Below are positions 21,875-30,150 of a DNA stretch of 46,210 nucleotides, piece after piece. A program made the position numbers and the translations under genes. Source of the stretch: Gammaproteobacteria bacterium (lineage in GTDB: Bacteria > Pseudomonadota > Gammaproteobacteria > Steroidobacterales > Steroidobacteraceae); the NCBI GenBank assembly GCA_028293805.1, contig JAQGOC010000123.1:1-46210 (forward strand), read 5' to 3'. The notes under the pieces were generated by a model. It did no database searches, was not told the origin of the DNA, and was given only the letters and a program-made list of their open reading frames with translations. Every line of letters starts with the position of its first letter. Within the stretch, counting starts at the first letter, position 1.

Positions 21875-23290
21875 TCAACGGGCTCCCTTACCCATGAGAA
21901 CGACCTCTGCCGTCTGCAAGAGAATCGCTACGTCGAAGATCAGACTATTGTGCTTTATGTAGTAGAGATCGTACTGAAGCTTCTCCTGCGCGTCCCGTTC
22001 GGACGCGCCGTACGGATAACACAGCTGCGCCCAGCCGGTGATGCCCGGCTTTACGCGGTGCCGCTGCCCATAATACGGAATCTTCTCGGTGAGCTCTTTC
22101 ACGAATTGAGGCCGCTCGGGCCGCGGCCCGACGAAACTCATCTCACCGCGCAACACATTCATCACCTGCGGGAGCTCGTCGATGCGCACTTTCCGGATCA
22201 CGGCCCCGACGCGAGTGACGCGCGGGTCTGACCGTTGCGCCCACCGGGCCCGGCCGTCCGCTTCCGCGTCCGTGCGCATGCTACGAAACTTAAGCACATT
22301 GAATGTCCGACCACCGAGTCCGATGCGAGGCTGTTGATAGAAGATTGGCGCCCGCCAGTTATCCTCAAGCTTGATCGCGAGTCCGGTAACCACCATGAGC
22401 GGAAGGAACAAGACCAGAATCAACACGCTGGCAAGGACGTCAAGGAGTCTGGATGAGAACAGTCGGATGGGGTCACGTCGAAAGCCCTCGCCAAAGATCA
22501 TCCAGCTCGGATGCATCATATCGATGCATACACCCCCGGTTTCGCGCTCGAGAAAATCGAGCAACTGCGTCACTTCGATGCCGGCGAAACGGCACTCGAG
22601 CAGTGCCACACCCGGAAAGCCCAGGCGTCGATCCTCCATCGCAACGACGACCTCGTCCACTTGATGCCTTTCGCACAGTTCGCAGAGCCCGCCGGCTGGC
22701 AGACCGAGGACCGGCTCGCAAGAGACTTCTATGCTTTCACCAGGCGGTTGCACGAACCCCACGATGTCGAAACCGCGCGGGTCGCCACGCCGCCGCAGCC
22801 GAGAGACTGCGGCGGTGCGGCTTCCCCCCCCATACACGAGCACCCGATGCTTGAATACCCTCCCATCCGCGGCACTGAAAAAAGCCAGTCGTGACAGCAC
22901 GACCCCGAACAATGCAAAGAGGGCTGCCAGTCCCAGTACGCCGCGGCCCAGCCACAGCAGGGGAAAGATATAGAACATTGCAGCGGTCATGACGGTGCCA
23001 TTTGCAACTCCCGCCAACAAGCGGGCCGCTGTGCCCGACACCCGCGTAGTCTGGAGCGAATTGTACAGACCAAACGAGAGCAAGCTCAGCAGTAACGCAG
23101 CGGTGAAGACCGCCGCGCACGGCCACAACATCTCCTCCCCGTCCTGCGCGCTATCGGCTCCTATCGGGTGCCATGACCCGAAGCGAACCCTGAATGCGAG
23201 CAGCAGCGCACCGAAAAAGATGAGTGTCTCGCCGCAGGCCAGCGCCGCCATCCACCTGTGGACGTACCGGCCGAAAAGTCGAATACGCAC
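21875..23290 (-). CDS. Polyprenyl-phosphate sugar-1-phosphate transferase (exosortase-system EpsB type)
   Basis: Starts glycan synthesis by moving a sugar-1-phosphate from a UDP-sugar to undecaprenyl phosphate at the inner membrane. Of 471 residues, the N-terminal half has about four membrane segments (about 12-150), followed by a Rossmann-like region (VLVYGGGSRTAAV). A further membrane helix (about 282-307) precedes the catalytic domain with FNVLKFRSMRTDAE, IDELPQVMNVLRGEMSFVGP and GITGWAQ. The pattern is that of WcaJ/EpsB-like enzymes common in PEP-CTERM/exosortase loci. It starts with GTG at 23290 behind GGGGAGGGAGG. It diverges from the exosortase gene across about 400 bases. Confidence 0.92.
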   Translation of the reverse strand: MRIRLFGRYVHRWMAALACGETLIFFGALLLAFRVRFGSWHPIGADSAQDGEEMLWPCAAVFTAALLLSLLSFGLYNSLQTTRVSGTAARLLAGVANGTVMTAAMFYIFPLLWLGRGVLGLAALFALFGVVLSRLAFFSAADGRVFKHRVLVYGGGSRTAAVSRLRRRGDPRGFDIVGFVQPPGESIEVSCEPVLGLPAGGLCELCERHQVDEVVVAMEDRRLGFPGVALLECRFAGIEVTQLLDFLERETGGVCIDMMHPSWMIFGEGFRRDPIRLFSSRLLDVLASVLILVLFLPLMVVTGLAIKLEDNWRAPIFYQQPRIGLGGRTFNVLKFRSMRTDAEADGRARWAQRSDPRVTRVGAVIRKVRIDELPQVMNVLRGEMSFVGPRPERPQFVKELTEKIPYYGQRHRVKPGITGWAQLCYPYGASERDAQEKLQYDLYYIKHNSLIFDVAILLQTAEVVLMGKGAR

Positions 23291-23688: not shown

Positions 23689-25392
23689 TTGAGAATCTCT
23701 CGGGCTAACGCGAGTCCCGGCATCACCACTGCCGCGTGGCGGGCAACGCCCCGTTCCCCAGCCGCCCTCCTCGACATTGCAACGGCCACTCGCGCAAGCC
23801 TTGCCGGCCGTCTGACCGTGATCGCATTGGTGTTGTTCGCCGAAAAAGTCATCCTCAACTTCTTTGTTAATTTTGACGGACCGCAGTCGACGACCCGCCT
23901 GGGAACAATCGTGAACGCCGCGCAGTTGTTGGGACTACGCTTCGTCGTCAGCTTCGCGGCACTGCTGGCTCTCTTCGGCTACGTGAGCGGCAGCGACCGC
24001 CTCGCGCAGGCAAATGCGGCGGCCCGGGGCGTGGCTGTGCGAACGCCGTGGTTGGTTCTGCAAGGAATGCTTGTAGCGGCGCTCGCACTGCTTGTGTGGT
24101 CCTTGGATGGTGAGCGCGGGATCCTCCTGCCATTCTCGATCACAGTAGCGCTGCTGGGGGCGCTCGGGATCGCGGCCGCAATGGCGCTGTTCACCGCGAT
24201 GGCGCCGTGGACGCTGTGGCTCCGAGCCGCCAAGGCCCTTGGTGCAGCTGCGGTATACGCTTTCATCGCCTCGCTGATCGCCACATGTGTCATATATTGG
24301 AGCCAGGCGCTATGGGCGCCGACAGCACGAGTCACTTTCGAGCTCGTGCGCGACCTCTTGACCCCGCTCATTCCGACCCTGCACAGCGATCCCGTCACTC
24401 GGGTTCTCAGCACGAAGCACTTCGCGGTCGAGGTCTCCGATATCTGCTCAGGGCTCGAGGGAGTGGGACTGATGCTGGCGTTCTGCTGCGCATGGCTGGT
24501 CTGCTTCCGCCAAGAGTACGTCTTTCCGCGGGCGCTGATCCTGATTCCCTGTGGACTGGCGCTGATTTTCGCGCTCAACGTGGTGCGAATCGCCGCTCTC
24601 GTGCTGATCGGAAACAGCGGACATCCTGAAGTCGCCCGCTACGGCTTCCACTCGCAAGCGGGCTGGATCGCGTTCAATATGGCCGCGTGCGGCATTGCGC
24701 TTGCCAGTCGGCGTGTTGCCTGGCTGAACCGCACGGCCGCAACCGGCGTCGAAGCCAACGCGGACAATCCGACAGCGGCCTATCTGCTTCCTTTGTTGGC
24801 AATCCTCGCTGCCGGGATCCTGGCGCGTGCACTCTCCAGCGGCTTTGTTGTCTTGGATTCGCTCCGGCTGGCCGCCGGTGTCCTGATGCTCTGGGTCTTC
24901 TGGCGCAGACTGGCGATGCTCAGTTGGCGCTTCAGTTGGCGCGGACCGCTCGCCGGTCTGTTGGTGTTTGCCCTCTGGATTGCGGCAGCGGACGTGCTCC
25001 TTGCGCGCAGCACGATGCCAGCGACTCTGAGCGCCTCGCCTGACTGGGCACGCGATGGCTGGATTGCCGGAAGGCTCGCCACGAGCGTGCTCGTCGTGCC
25101 AATTGCCGAAGAGCTGGCCTATCGGGGCTACCTGCTGCGCAGGATCGCCGCCGCGGACTTCGAGGGCGTGGCCTTCCGCAGTGTGGGCGGCTGGTCGTTA
25201 CTGGCCTCCTCCTTGCTCTTTGGCTTCGCGCACGGCGCGATGTGGCTTGCCGGTATTGCCGCCGGTGCAATCTATGCAGTCGTGTTGATTCGGACGGAGC
25301 GGATAGGCGAGGCCGTTGCGGCCCACGCCACCACCAACGGCCTGCTCGCGGCGTACGTGCTGCTGCTAAACCACTGGGAAATCTGGAGATAA
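23689..25392 (+). CDS. xrtE: Exosortase E fused to CPBP/CAAX-type protease (VPEID-CTERM system)
   Basis: Polytopic inner-membrane transpeptidase/protease that recognises a C-terminal sorting tail, cleaves it and probably passes the substrate to another molecule. The N-terminal half is the exosortase domain with the triad Cys253 (EVSDICSGLEG), Arg300 (LNVVRIAAL) and His321 (YGFHSQAGW). The C-terminal half (about 390-565) is a CPBP/CAAX-protease-like domain with PIAEELAYRGYLLRR (Glu474, Glu475, Arg479), FGFAHGAMW and HATTNGLLA. This fusion is diagnostic of the exosortase E family. The start is TTG at 23689 with AGGA 7 bases upstream. Its likely substrate is encoded 113 bases downstream. Confidence 0.93.
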   Translation: MRISRANASPGITTAAWRATPRSPAALLDIATATRASLAGRLTVIALVLFAEKVILNFFVNFDGPQSTTRLGTIVNAAQLLGLRFVVSFAALLALFGYVSGSDRLAQANAAARGVAVRTPWLVLQGMLVAALALLVWSLDGERGILLPFSITVALLGALGIAAAMALFTAMAPWTLWLRAAKALGAAAVYAFIASLIATCVIYWSQALWAPTARVTFELVRDLLTPLIPTLHSDPVTRVLSTKHFAVEVSDICSGLEGVGLMLAFCCAWLVCFRQEYVFPRALILIPCGLALIFALNVVRIAALVLIGNSGHPEVARYGFHSQAGWIAFNMAACGIALASRRVAWLNRTAATGVEANADNPTAAYLLPLLAILAAGILARALSSGFVVLDSLRLAAGVLMLWVFWRRLAMLSWRFSWRGPLAGLLVFALWIAAADVLLARSTMPATLSASPDWARDGWIAGRLATSVLVVPIAEELAYRGYLLRRIAAADFEGVAFRSVGGWSLLASSLLFGFAHGAMWLAGIAAGAIYAVVLIRTERIGEAVAAHATTNGLLAAYVLLLNHWEIWR

Positions 25393-25505
25393 CTCGCGGA
25401 GCCCAAGGGTAAGCTTGTGCAGCTGGTCAGTTTGATAGCAGTCAGCCCGTAGAATACGACCAGCAGATGTGTTAGGGTGTTGGCGACCCATGGGAGGGAA
25501 ACACC

Positions 25506-25721
25506 GTGCTCAAATCAATTGCTACTATGATGGCGATCATCTCCATCGGAGCCGCTACCGCGGCGTATGCGGACCCGGGCGGGGTGCCTAACGGGGGCAA
25601 TGGCAATGGCAAGGACAAGTCGATTGCAGCTCCCGAGATGGACCCTGCCACTGCCACGAGCGCATTGATCCTGCTCGCCGGGGGTCTTGCCGTCGTTCGC
25701 GGCCGTCGCGGCAACAGCTGA
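25506..25721 (+). CDS. VPEID-CTERM-like exosortase E substrate, 71 residues
   Basis: Predicted secreted peptide sorted by the adjacent exosortase E. Residues 1-22 are a signal peptide (cleavage after AAYA). Residues 23-42 are rich in Gly and Asn (DPGGVPNGGNGNG). The sorting tail begins APEMD (residues 42-46), a variant of VPEID, followed by a hydrophobic helix (about 48-64) and the basic end RGRRGNS. After both cuts only about 20 residues would remain. The start is GTG at 25506 behind a strong GGGAGGG. It converges tightly with the sulfotransferase gene. The assignment rests on tail architecture and the neighbouring exosortase, not on sequence length. Confidence 0.88.
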   Translation: MLKSIATMMAIISIGAATAAYADPGGVPNGGNGNGKDKSIAAPEMDPATATSALILLAGGLAVVRGRRGNS

Positions 25722-25727
25722 GGTCAG

Positions 25728-27023
25728 TCAATCAGGCGACCAGGGGCCGCGCTCCTGGCGCCTGCTCGAGCGACAACGCTCTGCGGCGAAGCGTGCTCGT
25801 ATGCGCGGCGGGAGCGTTGTAACTTTTCTGTTGAGGGGATCCCCGGCTGCAGCGGCGTTCCCAAACTCCACGAATGTCTCGTCCACCTGCTCTTCTATCG
25901 CCGCGAACCACTCATCAGCTGCATAGGATTGCCACTTGCCGACTGTGCCCGGCCTCACCAGAGGCAACAAGGTGCTCGCGTCATACTCGGCTGCCGCAAG
26001 TTTGCTGAAAATGGTTCGCAGACCCGATTCAGGGCTGGCGAGGAGATCTTCCAAGGCGATCGAGACATCCGCATAGAGGCGCCCGAACAGGTATGACAAC
26101 TTCCAGATCTGATAGAAAAGCTCGTACGGGTGCGAGCGCTCATCCAACGTCAGGAACGGGAAATAGGAGTGCAGGTCCCTGCCCCACTGCAGCAGATAAA
26201 ATCCGTCGATCGCCTCGAATTCGCGCACCGTATTGCTCCTGGAGCTCTTGAGATCTCGCCCGAGCGCAGAGCACCACTGATCGCGGGGATGACGGAAGAT
26301 GTGCAGTATTCTCGCGCTCGGAAATCGCGCACGCAGCCACGGCAGCCGCAGGTCCATCTCATTGAATTGCAGCACCGGCCGGCCGGGGGCCCGCTCGATC
26401 AGGGTTTCGATATAACGCTGCATGCCGGGCTCCCAGGCGTGCGCCGGCATGTACAGGCGCTGGAATTTCCAATCCGCTGAGAAGTAATTGCCGAGCACGT
26501 CCAGTCCGTCGTACTCGGCCCAATAATCACAGACCTTCAGGTGTGAGGCATCGACGTGCGAGCCGCGCGTCGCCGGATCGAACCAGCGCCGCTCGTTGAA
26601 AGGTTCGTAGTACGAGGTGAACGACGGAACGTTCCTGAACAGATTCCAGATGAGCGTGCTACCGCTGCGAAACCGGCCTGTAACGAAGATCACATCGCAG
26701 CGGCGACACGCACGCAGACTCCGCCTCTCCCTGCGCAATTCGGGATACGGCGCTTCCAGTACGCAGTGGGCCGATAACTCCCGCGGGAATGGCGCAGCGT
26801 TCTGTTTATGCAAAAGGTCGGAAAAGACGTCAAGACTTTCCTGAATGAAGGCTACGCGACGCATTGCGGTAAAGAAGCGCTGTCGTGCAGCGCTTCTGAG
26901 CTGCCAGAGAATGGGTATGCGTTTCAGGATTGAGGTCAGGTCCACATGATGCTCGAATCTTCTGGACAGGTGCGGAAAGTCCTGGTGCGAGGGCGTCAAG
27001 CTGGCTCTACTCGAGGTTTTCAA
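25728..27023 (-). CDS. PAPS-dependent sulfotransferase
   Basis: Transfers sulfate from PAPS to an acceptor, here most likely a sugar of the locus glycan. Of 431 residues, the 5'-phosphosulfate loop is FVTGRFRSGSTLIWNLF (about 111-127) and the 3'-phosphate motif is ILHIFRHPRDQWCSALGRD (about 243-261). PGTVGKWQSY near residue 375 resembles the C-terminal GxxGxWK motif. The N-terminal 100 residues are not recognised. The listed start is a TTG at 27023 with a weak ribosome site, so the true start may be further in. No PAPS synthesis genes are in the window. Confidence 0.85.
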   Translation of the reverse strand: MKTSSRASLTPSHQDFPHLSRRFEHHVDLTSILKRIPILWQLRSAARQRFFTAMRRVAFIQESLDVFSDLLHKQNAAPFPRELSAHCVLEAPYPELRRERRSLRACRRCDVIFVTGRFRSGSTLIWNLFRNVPSFTSYYEPFNERRWFDPATRGSHVDASHLKVCDYWAEYDGLDVLGNYFSADWKFQRLYMPAHAWEPGMQRYIETLIERAPGRPVLQFNEMDLRLPWLRARFPSARILHIFRHPRDQWCSALGRDLKSSRSNTVREFEAIDGFYLLQWGRDLHSYFPFLTLDERSHPYELFYQIWKLSYLFGRLYADVSIALEDLLASPESGLRTIFSKLAAAEYDASTLLPLVRPGTVGKWQSYAADEWFAAIEEQVDETFVEFGNAAAAGDPLNRKVTTLPPRIRARFAAERCRSSRRQERGPWSPD

Positions 27024-27447: not shown

Positions 27448-27969
27448 ATGCCCGTAGCGGAAAGCGTCCGGATTGGAGAGAACGTCACCATATTCGACCC
27501 TGCACTCGTCAATCTCTATGGCTGCGCGATCGGGAAAGACACGAAGATCGGTGTGTTCGTCGAGATTCAAAAAAACGCCATTATTGGCGCCCGCTGCAAG
27601 GTTTCCTCACACACCTTCATCTGTGAGGGTGTCGTGATCGAGGACGAGGTGTTTATCGGTCACGGCGTGATGTTCACTAATGACCGATATCCCCGGGCAA
27701 GCAATGCGGATGGAACGCCGCAAACAGAGGCCGACTGGACGCTCGAGACTACTCGGGTCGGGCGCACGGCTTCCATAGGATCAAACGCCACAATTCTCTG
27801 CGGCGCAATCATTGGGCAGGGCGCACTCGTTGGCGCTGGCGCTGTGGTGACCGGGCACGTCGATGATTACGCAATCATGGCCGGCGTTCCAGCGCGCAAG
27901 ATCGGCGATACACGCCACCGCAAACCACAGCTTCGCGGCGGCATACCGCACGAGCGCCGCGATCTATAG
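27448..27969 (+). CDS. Left-handed beta-helix acyltransferase (WbpD-like)
   Basis: Predicted N-acetyltransferase for a UDP-amino sugar. The 173 residues are mostly hexapeptide repeats ([LIV]-G-x-x-x-x), for example AIGKDTKIGVFVEI and GAIIGQGALVGAGAVVTGHV, ending in the common AGVPARKIG. FTNDRYPRA is typical of WbpD/WlbB enzymes. The next two genes match the WbpB (dehydrogenase) and WbpE (aminotransferase) steps, so the trio probably installs a 3-acetamido group on a UDP-hexosamine uronic acid or related sugar. ATG at 27448 has GGAG 9 bases upstream. It is the first gene of the operon. Confidence 0.87.
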   Translation: MPVAESVRIGENVTIFDPALVNLYGCAIGKDTKIGVFVEIQKNAIIGARCKVSSHTFICEGVVIEDEVFIGHGVMFTNDRYPRASNADGTPQTEADWTLETTRVGRTASIGSNATILCGAIIGQGALVGAGAVVTGHVDDYAIMAGVPARKIGDTRHRKPQLRGGIPHERRDL

Positions 27970-27986
27970 CCATAAGGTACGCAGAC

Positions 27987-29009
27987 ATGCTCAACATTGG
28001 CGTCATCGGCTATGGCTACTGGGGACCGAATCTGGTGAGGAATTTCGCAGAGCTTTCCGGGGCAACTGTTGCTGCCGTCTCCGATCTGGATCCGAAGAAG
28101 CTTGCGACCGTACAGCGCCGCTATCCTGCAGTAACGACGACGACTGACTGGCAACAGTTGATACGCGACCCCCGGATCGATGTCATAGCGGTTGCAACTC
28201 CGGTCAGCTCGCACTTCGAGCTCGGCATGGCGACCCTCAAAGCGGGCAAACATCTATGGATCGAGAAGCCCATGGCCGAGACCTCGCTCCAGGCTCGTAA
28301 GCTCCTTGACGAAGCGGACCGGCGCAAACGCGTTCTATTCGTGGACCACACCTTCGTGTACACAGGCGCCATTCGCAAGATGTCCGAAATAATCGGCGCC
28401 GGGGAACTTGGCCGGATTTTTTATTATGACTCGATCCGTGTAAACCTTGGCCTCTTCCAACGTGACGTCAGTGTCATCTCTGACCTCGCCGTCCACGACT
28501 TCTCGCTGCTCGAATTTCTCTTCCACGAGCACCCCGTCGCCGTCTCCGCCAGTGGTATCAACCACTTTCCGGGCACACCGGAGAATCTTGCCTACATTAC
28601 ACTCTTCTACGACTCCGGAATGATCGCGCACGCGAACGTCAGCTGGCTCGCCCCTGTGAAGGTGCGCCAGATCCTCATTGGCGGCAGCAGGAAGATGATT
28701 ACCTACGATGATCTCGAGCCCAGTGAAAAAGTGAAGATCTACGACAAGGGCGTCAGCTTTACGGATGATCCAAAGGCCATCCTGGAGATGCGCGTCGGCT
28801 ATCGCACAGGAGACATGTGGGCTCCCAAGCTCGACACGACCGAAGCCTTGCGCATAGAAGGTGAACACTTTATCGACTGCATCGACTGCGGCGGGTCCCC
28901 TCGGACCGATGCCCGGCTCGGTTTGAAGGTCGTTGAGCTGATCGAAGCCGCGACGAGCTCGATGCGCGGCCGTGGCGAAACCGTGTACCTGAATCGCAGG
29001 ACAATATAG
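27987..29009 (+). CDS. Gfo/Idh/MocA family sugar-nucleotide oxidoreductase (WbpB-like)
   Basis: NAD(P)-dependent oxidation of a sugar nucleotide, probably at C3, giving the keto substrate for the following aminotransferase. Of 340 residues, the Rossmann motif is IGVIGYGYWGPNLVRNF at the N-terminus. The family signature EKPMA (about residue 92) and the Gfo/Idh C-terminal domain (about 125-300) are present. It starts 17 bases after the acetyltransferase stop and ends one base before the aminotransferase start. The exact sugar is inferred from the WbpB/D/E-like set; the C6 dehydrogenase of that pathway is not in the window. Confidence 0.88.
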   Translation: MLNIGVIGYGYWGPNLVRNFAELSGATVAAVSDLDPKKLATVQRRYPAVTTTTDWQQLIRDPRIDVIAVATPVSSHFELGMATLKAGKHLWIEKPMAETSLQARKLLDEADRRKRVLFVDHTFVYTGAIRKMSEIIGAGELGRIFYYDSIRVNLGLFQRDVSVISDLAVHDFSLLEFLFHEHPVAVSASGINHFPGTPENLAYITLFYDSGMIAHANVSWLAPVKVRQILIGGSRKMITYDDLEPSEKVKIYDKGVSFTDDPKAILEMRVGYRTGDMWAPKLDTTEALRIEGEHFIDCIDCGGSPRTDARLGLKVVELIEAATSSMRGRGETVYLNRRTI

Positions 29010-29010
29010 C

Positions 29011-30150
29011 GTGATTCCGTTCGTCGACCTGCGGACTCAGTACCACAGCATCAAAGGCGAGATCGATGCGGCCATTGCCGGCGTGCTCGAGAGCTGCCAG
29101 TTCACACTCGGCAGCGAGGTGGAAAAGTTCGAGGAAGAGTTTGCCGCTTATACGGGGAGCACGTTCGCCATTGGCGTGAATACCGGCACGAGCGCCCTAC
29201 ACCTGGCGCTGCTCGCTGCCAATGTTGGGCCGGGCGATGAGGTCATTACCGTTCCATTTACGTTCGTAGCCACTGTCGCGGCAATCCACTACACCGGGGC
29301 CAAAGCGGTGTTCGTGGACATCGACCCGCGGACGTACACGATCGACCCCGCCCAGATAGAAGCGGCCGTCACTTCGAGGACGAAGGCAATCATCCCGGTA
29401 CACCTCTACGGTCAACCGGCCGATATGGATCCAATCATGGTGACCGCGAAGAAGCGCGGACTCATTGTGATCGAGGATGCCTGCCAGGCGCACGGGGCCG
29501 AGTACAAAGGCAAGCGCGTGGGCAGCATAGGCGACTTCGGCTGCTTCAGCTTCTATCCGGGAAAGAACCTTGGCGCATACGGCGAAGGCGGCCTGGTCAC
29601 GACCCAGAAGGGCGAGTTCAACCGCATCGTACGCATGCTGCGAGACTGGGGCGCCGAGAGAAAGTATCAGCACGTGCTGAAGGGCTACAACTATCGGCTC
29701 GAGGGTATTCAGGGTGCGGTGCTGCGCGTGAAGCTGAAATGCCTCGAGAGATGGACCGAGGAACGTCGCGCTATAGCAGCCCGTTATGACCTCCACTTCG
29801 CGGGCAGCAGAATCATCACACCGCAAGCGATGCCGTACGCGCGCCACGTGTATCACATTTATGCGATCCGCGCCGACCGGCGTTCCAGGTGGCAGGAAGA
29901 GCTGCAGGCCCAAGACATCCAGACGGGGATCCACTATCCGACTCCGGTCCATTTGCTGCCCGCCTATGCTGACCTCGAGTACCGGGAGGGCCAATTTCCG
30001 CACTCGGAAAAGGCAGCGAACGAGGTCTTGTCTTTGCCGATGTTTCCCGAGCTCACCGCTGAGCAAACCGACACGGTGGCGCATGCGGTTCTCGAGCTCG
30101 CCTCGCATACACGGGCGGGCGCAGGTGGACAACCAAAGGCCGCAAGGTGA
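29011..30150 (+). CDS. DegT/DnrJ/EryC1 aminotransferase (WbpE-like)
   Basis: PLP-dependent sugar-nucleotide aminotransferase. Of 379 residues, landmarks are FVDLRTQYHSIKGEID at the N-terminus, NTGTSALHLAL, the PLP-stacking IEDACQAHGA and the Schiff-base lysine in FSFYPGKNLGAYGEGG. It starts with GTG at 29011, one base after the oxidoreductase stop, with AGGA about 9 bases upstream. It most likely aminates the 3-keto sugar made by the preceding enzyme. Its stop overlaps the next start by four bases (GTGA). Confidence 0.92.
   Translation: MIPFVDLRTQYHSIKGEIDAAIAGVLESCQFTLGSEVEKFEEEFAAYTGSTFAIGVNTGTSALHLALLAANVGPGDEVITVPFTFVATVAAIHYTGAKAVFVDIDPRTYTIDPAQIEAAVTSRTKAIIPVHLYGQPADMDPIMVTAKKRGLIVIEDACQAHGAEYKGKRVGSIGDFGCFSFYPGKNLGAYGEGGLVTTQKGEFNRIVRMLRDWGAERKYQHVLKGYNYRLEGIQGAVLRVKLKCLERWTEERRAIAARYDLHFAGSRIITPQAMPYARHVYHIYAIRADRRSRWQEELQAQDIQTGIHYPTPVHLLPAYADLEYREGQFPHSEKAANEVLSLPMFPELTAEQTDTVAHAVLELASHTRAGAGGQPKAAR

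What the first reader, a model, noticed from the sequence alone, without database searches (positions are those of the whole stretch)
23689..25721. Complete exosortase E / VPEID-CTERM pair: fused sortase-protease next to its likely single substrate
The sequence shows an exosortase domain (Cys253, Arg300, His321) fused to a CPBP/CAAX-type protease domain (Glu474-Glu475-x3-Arg479). It is followed at 113 bases by a 71-residue protein with a signal peptide and an APEMD-helix-RGRR tail. The fusion and tail class are known as the exosortase E system, but its biological role is largely undescribed. Here it sits at the edge of a sulfated-glycan export locus, which suggests the substrate may be joined to that glycan or lipid.
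Basis: partly seen in the sequence, partly recalled or inferred. Interest (0 to 1): 0.78.

Follow-up and report, generated by a model that had tools for sequence, protein, structure and literature searches.

The report
Fused membrane sortase and tag peptide
A bacterium carries a membrane enzyme that joins two protein-cutting modules, next to one tiny secreted peptide that is little more than the enzyme's recognition tag; the enzyme family is known, but the near-absence of any protein attached to the tag is a fresh clue to what it does.

Summary
ORF 23689-25392 is an exosortase fused to a CPBP protease and passes the exosortase E model (TIGR04162, 188 bits, cut-off 150). The 71-aa tail protein starts 113 bases later but scores only 14.5 bits on the VPEID-CTERM model (cut-off 33): its tail is a variant. 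70 of 83 distinct XrtE loci carry such a protein nearby; a slightly stricter rule fires once in 777 kb further away. The tail is unique in this 89%-complete genome.

The proposed link to the neighbouring glycan is not supported: no neighbour gene is shared by more than 9 of 83 loci.

What stands out: the partner is mostly signal peptide and tag. The stretch before PE has a median of 13 residues. In tandem copies the tail is conserved while that stretch drifts. In one related gamma clade the same tail sits on secreted proteins of 209-342 aa; in three of its four genomes XrtE is the only exosortase found. So the tail is a portable sorting tag. Structure prediction could not be run.

The parts
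23689..25392 (+). xrtE: exosortase domain (Cys253, Arg300, His321) fused to a CPBP/Rce1-like glutamic intramembrane protease domain (Glu474, His515, His546, Asn550)
   Evidence: TIGR04162 188 bits, TIGR03008 121 bits; PF09721 and PF02517; residue conservation over 76 aligned XrtE proteins
25506..25721 (+). 71-aa dedicated partner: signal peptide, about 20-residue Gly/Asn-rich stretch, APEMD + helix + RGRR tail
   Evidence: tail profile E 2.7e-13; same kind of ORF near 70 of 83 XrtE loci, this one included; TIGR04161 below cut-off
25626..25712 (+). sorting tag proper as matched by the tail profile (model positions 1-29 of 31)
   Evidence: consensus, paralogue comparison
21875..23290 (-). divergent TIGR03013 EpsB_2-type glycosylphosphotransferase; neighbour, not shown to belong to the pair
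   Evidence: 541 bits; a second copy over cut-off on contig C173; relative in only 1 of 82 other XrtE loci
25728..27023 (-). sulfotransferase (PF13469), convergent neighbour, not shown to belong
   Evidence: relative in 0 of 82 other XrtE loci

Best explanation
This is a dedicated exosortase E sorting pair. The 71-aa pre-peptide is exported by Sec, signal peptidase removes its N-terminus, and the C-terminal helix holds it in the inner membrane with APEMD at the periplasmic face. The exosortase half (Cys/Arg/His) recognises the tag and cuts at or near it, most likely passing the new C-terminus to an unknown lipid or sugar acceptor. The CPBP half makes a second cut in the same tag, perhaps to clear the helix stub. 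The product in this cell is a Gly/Asn-rich peptide of about 20 residues, not a folded surface protein. Shown: fusion, intact catalytic residues, partnership, tag conservation, presence of the tag on secreted proteins in a sister clade. Inferred: cleavage, transfer, order of the two cuts, acceptor.
For: TIGR04162 hit; all 68 XrtE proteins scanned (the window's included) match it at E 1e-43 or better. Partner near 70 of 83 loci; a slightly stricter rule gives 89 hits within 1 kb (151 kb) against 1 beyond 2.5 kb (777 kb). In 196 genomes (own included) XrtE passes the cut-off in 8, the tail profile hits 9, both in 7; each of the two tail-only genomes has a tail cut by a contig end, and one of them (G036) a second tail inside another contig. 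Exosortase triad 76 of 76, CPBP residues 72-76 of 76. Tail pN 0.13 against pS 0.57 (medians of 29 paralogue pairs) and identity tail 0.78, stretch before PE 0.35. Same tail on 7 secreted-looking proteins of 209-342 aa in 4 of 39 genomes, one with a Pfam domain, Ice_binding; XrtE is the only exosortase found in 3 of those 4. By alignment hydropathy Cys253 and His321 fall on the positive-poor (periplasmic) side and Glu474 at the opposite end of a helix (crude).
Against: No cleavage or transfer has been shown here, and none for XrtE in the passages I read. Glu474 is lost in 2 of 76 (L032, L036) and His515 replaced in 4 of 76, and L032 still has a partner, so the protease may not always be needed. 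L036/G401 keeps XrtE with no tail found in its held genome at E 0.01 (the same contig is in G052, 82% complete). L081 has full flanks and no local partner, although its genome has 6 tails elsewhere. L068 has only an ordinary PEP-CTERM protein beside it. The membrane orientation rests on hydropathy only; structure prediction failed and was then switched off.
Confidence: 0.72

Rival explanations
1. One reading: XrtE joins the peptide to the glycan made by this very locus (an O-antigen-like, possibly sulfated polymer), perhaps through a 3-amino sugar, as type IX secretion cargo is joined to A-LPS.
For: The neighbouring genes look like an amino-sugar and ABC-export glycan locus: acetyltransferase near PDB 3mqg, UDP-GlcNAc 3-dehydrogenase-like protein, QdtB/WbpE-like aminotransferase, ABC-2, Wzt_C, Wzy_C. 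PMC7468200 (passages seen) describes a Wbp-pathway linking sugar on type IX cargo and speculates about a similar acceptor for exosortases. Epimerase relatives lie in 4-5 of 82 other XrtE loci.
Against: Most of these genes do not recur at other XrtE loci: the aminotransferases and sulfotransferase in 0 of 82, the dehydrogenase in 2, the glycosylphosphotransferase in 1; no Pfam family in more than 3 of 121 near neighbours. The UDP-GlcNAc 3-dehydrogenase model is far below its cut-off (152 of 450 bits).
Confidence: 0.13
2. The pair works like a peptide-maturation (RiPP-like) system: the tag is a follower that two membrane proteases remove, and the product of interest is the short released or modified peptide.
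For: The stretch between signal peptide and tag is short (median 13 residues from hydrophobic core to PE, 59 of 90 at most 15) and differs between tandem copies while the tag is kept. 15 of 70 loci have two or more copies.
Against: I saw no shared motif in the short stretch. The same tag is on larger secreted-looking proteins in a sister clade, which suits a sorting tag better. No export or immunity gene was seen to recur widely nearby.
Confidence: 0.12
3. The small partner is not a substrate but a small membrane subunit or regulator of XrtE, kept for its helix.
For: The helix is conserved residue by residue (Leu 86 of 90, Gly 82 of 90, two Arg 79 and 80 of 90) and many partners have almost nothing else. 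It persists where cargo proteins with the same tail exist elsewhere (G399, G402, G403).
Against: Motif plus helix plus basic end is the architecture of known C-terminal sorting tags; cargo proteins carry the same helix. Several copies per genome and lack of a local copy at L081 fit substrates better than a subunit.
Confidence: 0.1

Closest known systems
Exosortase E / VPEID-CTERM system (NCBIfam TIGR04162, TIGR04161)
   Same: Fused exosortase-CPBP enzyme passes the model; small tail protein adjacent. In two genomes whose tails pass TIGR04161, the tail gene lies next to an ORF with CSGxE and EExxxR motifs (not scanned with TIGR04162), and its spacer is Gly/Asn/Trp- or Gly/Ser-rich.
   Different: Tail APEMDP... 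scores below the TIGR04161 cut-off; partner lies downstream of the enzyme (upstream in 49 of 70 loci).
XrtA (EpsH) / PEP-CTERM
   Same: Homologous exosortase domain; motif-helix-basic tail. Four fusions of EpsH-like and CAAX-protease-like domains were already noted in 2006 (PMC1569441, passages seen).
   Different: PEP-CTERM genomes have a median of eight substrates and EPS genes. This genome holds a separate XrtA-like enzyme fused to EpsI with EPS genes and one classic PEP-CTERM protein on contig C246.
Myxosortase MrtX / MYXO-CTERM and MrtJ / JDVT-CTERM
   Same: CPBP protease acting on a tripartite C-terminal tag; MrtJ is also a two-gene, one-target module (PMC11980579, passages seen). The residues named there (E146, H188, H223, N227) correspond by motif to Glu474, His515, His546, Asn550.
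   Different: No invariant Cys in the XrtE tag; an exosortase domain is fused on.
Rhombosortase / GlyGly-CTERM dedicated systems
   Same: Enzyme and target mostly adjacent when the genome has a single target (PMC3237569, passages seen).
   Different: Rhomboid-type enzyme and another motif; XrtE partners are mostly tag with little cargo.

Membership tests
Exosortase E (TIGR04162) | Whole-protein score over the curated cut-off | tested here: met
   188.2 bits, cut-off 150
Exosortase E (TIGR04162) | Exosortase Cys, Arg, His present | tested here: met
   Cys253, Arg300, His321; 76 of 76 aligned
Exosortase E (TIGR04162) | C-terminal CPBP protease domain with EExxxR, His and HxxxN | tested here: met
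   PF02517 52.7 bits; E474, E475, R479, H515, H546, N550
VPEID-CTERM (TIGR04161) | Partner tail over the curated cut-off | tested here: not met
   14.5 bits for the protein, 16.6 for the tail alone, cut-off 33; 37 of 54 related tails match at E 1 or better
VPEID-CTERM (TIGR04161) | Tail adjacent to xrtE and co-distributed with it | tested here: met
   70 of 83 loci; of 196 genomes 7 with both, 1 enzyme only, 2 tail only, 186 neither (18 more genomes have XrtE-model matches below the cut-off)
VPEID-CTERM (TIGR04161) | Tail is cleaved by the enzyme | not testable with these tools
   needs mutants and mass spectrometry
PEP-CTERM (TIGR02595) | Tail over the PEP-CTERM cut-off | tested here: not met
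   The window protein is not matched at E 1; the only match in this genome is C246:10014-10094
Myxosortase family (NF040914) | Score over cut-off | tested here: not met
   33.8 bits, cut-off 100

The most novel reading that the evidence does not exclude
Exosortase E systems are, across at least four phyla, tag-first systems: the ancestral and usual partner is a bare tag (signal peptide joined almost directly to the recognition helix), so the biological product is a short peptide conjugate or processed helix rather than an anchored protein. One gammaproteobacterial clade later spread the tag onto real secreted proteins. The two active sites of the fusion act on the two conserved ends of the same tag (PE[IM]D outside, R[GS]RR inside).
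Probability: 0.27. Interest if true: 0.74.

Novelty: new variant of a known kind. Interest (0 to 1): 0.5.

Why it matters
What exosortases and archaeosortases attach to their substrates is called unidentified or unclear in passages seen here. XrtE pairs reduce the problem to one enzyme and a peptide of tens of residues, small enough to read whole by mass spectrometry. Named strains occur among the relatives (Singulisphaera acidiphila, Terracidiphilus gabretensis, Silvibacterium bohemicum, Acidicapsa dinghuensis, Aquisphaera insulae). The tag profile built here finds the window's partner, which the present VPEID-CTERM model scores below its cut-off.

Tried and rejected
Chance pairing: rejected by the near/far control and the genome profiles (the genomes are related, so Fisher p 1.4e-10 overstates it).

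A conserved glycan operon around xrtE: looked for by clustering 852 neighbour ORFs from 83 loci (the largest shared cluster spans 9 loci, a TonB-type outer-membrane protein, the next 7, an ABC ATPase, then 6, a sugar epimerase that includes a window gene), by tblastn of 35 window ORFs, xrtE included, and by Pfam on 121 neighbour proteins hand-picked from 273 printed. No widely shared gene found. Neighbours were called by a longest-ORF rule, not a gene finder, and many contigs are short, so genes may be missed.

Link between protease decay and partner loss: L036 has Glu474 to Ala and no tail found in its held genome, but L032 has Glu474 to Gly and keeps a partner, so no rule follows.

Signal-peptide cleavage sites were estimated by a crude rule; I rely instead on the distance from hydrophobic core to PE. 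Promoter and terminator scan gave nothing useful. No solved structure matches the XrtE profile at E 1. The tree is the quick one; the careful search did not finish.

Literature: the 2012 exosortase paper (PMC3256604, known from a reference list) is not held, so whether tag-only partners were described there is unknown to me. 'VPEID-CTERM' is in neither of the 2 papers returned; 'VPEID' is in none of the 10 papers listed of the 81 that hold VPEID or exosortase; the other 71 were not seen.

Of the 13 loci without a partner by the rule, 8 are cut by a contig end in or within 500 bases of xrtE (L039, L050, L054, L060, L061, L093, L100, L103); L042 and L082 hold a tail remnant or a tail ORF without a signal peptide by HMM; L068 has an ordinary PEP-CTERM protein; L036 and L081 have none.

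Full report
OBSERVATION. The upstream sequence AGGACGAGCGA-TTG and GGGAGGGAAACACC-GTG offers plausible ribosome sites for both starts (read by eye). The large protein passes TIGR04162 (188.2 bits against 150), TIGR03008 (121 against 81) and TIGR04178 (48 against 23), and both Pfam domains. The tail protein fails TIGR04161 (14.5 against 33), has no Pfam hit at E 0.1, and is not a PEP-CTERM match in the genome search.

RELATIVES. In 196 genomes (own included) XrtE passes the cut-off in 8; 18 more have weaker matches. A scan of genome contigs found 320 relatives and kept 80: mainly Acidobacteriota, then Gammaproteobacteria, Planctomycetota and one Binatota. With the window, L003 and L004 this gives 83 distinct loci. 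All 68 enzymes scanned, the window's included, match TIGR04162 at E 1e-43 or better. In a quick tree of 74 enzymes (the careful search did not finish) the 11 Pseudomonadota rows named as such plus the window form one supported group (100); L003 and L004 fall elsewhere, on long branches.

PARTNER. A script asking for PE, a hydrophobic helix and a basic end within 2.5 kb found a partner at 70 of 83 loci (90 proteins). Eight of the other 13 are cut by a contig end; two hold a damaged tail. The median absolute gap is 62 bases; 49 nearest partners lie upstream on the same strand, 15 downstream, 6 downstream and convergent. As control, a slightly stricter rule fires 89 times within 1 kb of xrtE (151 kb) and once beyond 2.5 kb (777 kb), that one a doubtful match. 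In the 196 genomes the tail profile hits 9, of which 7 are XrtE genomes. The two others (G036, G064) each have a tail cut at its 5' side by a contig end, where the window's gene order would place xrtE off the contig; G036 has a second tail protein inside another contig. In the window's own genome the tail is unique, with the caveat of 89% completeness and 392 contigs.

THE PARTNER HAS LITTLE CARGO. Of 90 partners, 31 are at most 60 aa and 79 at most 100 aa; from the end of the signal peptide's hydrophobic core to PE the median is 13 residues, at most 15 in 59 and at most 40 in 80. Some are 49-52 aa in a frame that allows no longer start. Stretches of 16-60 residues are rich in Ala, Gly, Pro, Ser and Asp. 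Two genomes whose tails pass TIGR04161 show the same kind of spacer. The exceptions are L105 (FecR domain, 304 aa), L032 (83 residues) and a 298-aa Pro/Ser-rich protein in G036.

SELECTION. In 29 pairs of copies from 15 loci the median identity is 0.50 for the signal peptide, 0.35 for the stretch before PE and 0.78 for the tail; median tail pS is 0.57 and pN 0.13. The pairs are not independent: 10 come from L053 and 6 from L104. The consensus is [AV]PEIDPxSAxSALALLxGxLLVxRGRRK; P and E are fixed by the search rule, and hydrophobic helix and basic end are demanded by it, but not which residues.

THE TAG IS PORTABLE. Searching 39 genomes with the tail profile found tails in 38. I fetched 13 of the distant places listed. 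Seven proteins of 209-342 aa with signal-like N-termini carry the same tail, in G399, G402, G403 and G414; the other six fetched are 59-114 aa. One of the seven has an Ice_binding domain, the other six no Pfam hit. The XrtE proteins of these four genomes form one supported clade (96). In G399, G402 and G403 XrtE is the only exosortase found, so it is the natural enzyme for those tails. G414 has a second exosortase. This supports a sorting tag and speaks against the tail being only a subunit of XrtE.

TWO ACTIVE SITES. Exosortase residues are invariant in 76 of 76; CPBP residues range from 72 to 76 of 76. The myxosortase paper gives E146 and H188 as water-bridging and H223/N227 as oxyanion residues (passages); the window's Glu474, His515, His546 and Asn550 correspond by motif. 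Alignment-averaged hydropathy and positive charges place Cys253 and His321 on one face and Glu474 at the far end of a helix. From this I infer, without structure, that the two sites may serve the two conserved ends of the tag.

NEIGHBOURHOOD. The window is a glycan locus, but its genes are rarely found at other XrtE loci: most in 0-2 of 82, sugar epimerases in 4-5. This genome also has an XrtA-like exosortase fused to EpsI with XrtA-type EPS genes and its own PEP-CTERM protein on another contig. So two separate tag-enzyme pairs coexist.

VERDICT. A true exosortase E enzyme with a variant tail on its partner; known in kind. EpsH-CAAX-protease fusions were noted in 2006. The bare-tag nature of most partners, the conservation of the tag, and its use on larger proteins in one clade are what I would pass on. 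I could not read the 2012 exosortase paper, so I do not claim the bare-tag point is unpublished.

Noticed in passing
G000:C246 (L121 10707-12227 and 10002-10574): Second exosortase, XrtA-like (183.7 bits, cut-off 208) fused to an EpsI domain, with XrtA-type chain-length and tyrosine-kinase-like genes and one classic VPEPGT PEP-CTERM protein.
   Followed up: partly
window 27448-30150: Acetyltransferase, sugar 3-dehydrogenase-like and QdtB/WbpE-like aminotransferase genes in a row, suggesting a 3-amino sugar in the nearby glycan.
   Followed up: partly
L036 / G401: XrtE with the first CPBP Glu changed to Ala and no tail protein found in its held genome: possibly a decaying system.
   Followed up: partly
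L053, L104, L063, L045, L049: Two to five near-bare tag genes beside one xrtE.
   Followed up: partly
L155 1033-2061: Ice-binding-like secreted protein (PF11999) carrying an XrtE-type tail.
   Followed up: no
near neighbours of xrtE in the relatives: Fatty-acid hydroxylase (PF04116) in 3 of 121 near neighbours, the joint highest count; probably chance.
   Followed up: no
NCBIfam TIGR04161: The VPEID-CTERM model matches only 37 of 54 XrtE-linked tails even at E 1; it looks narrow for these groups.
   Followed up: partly
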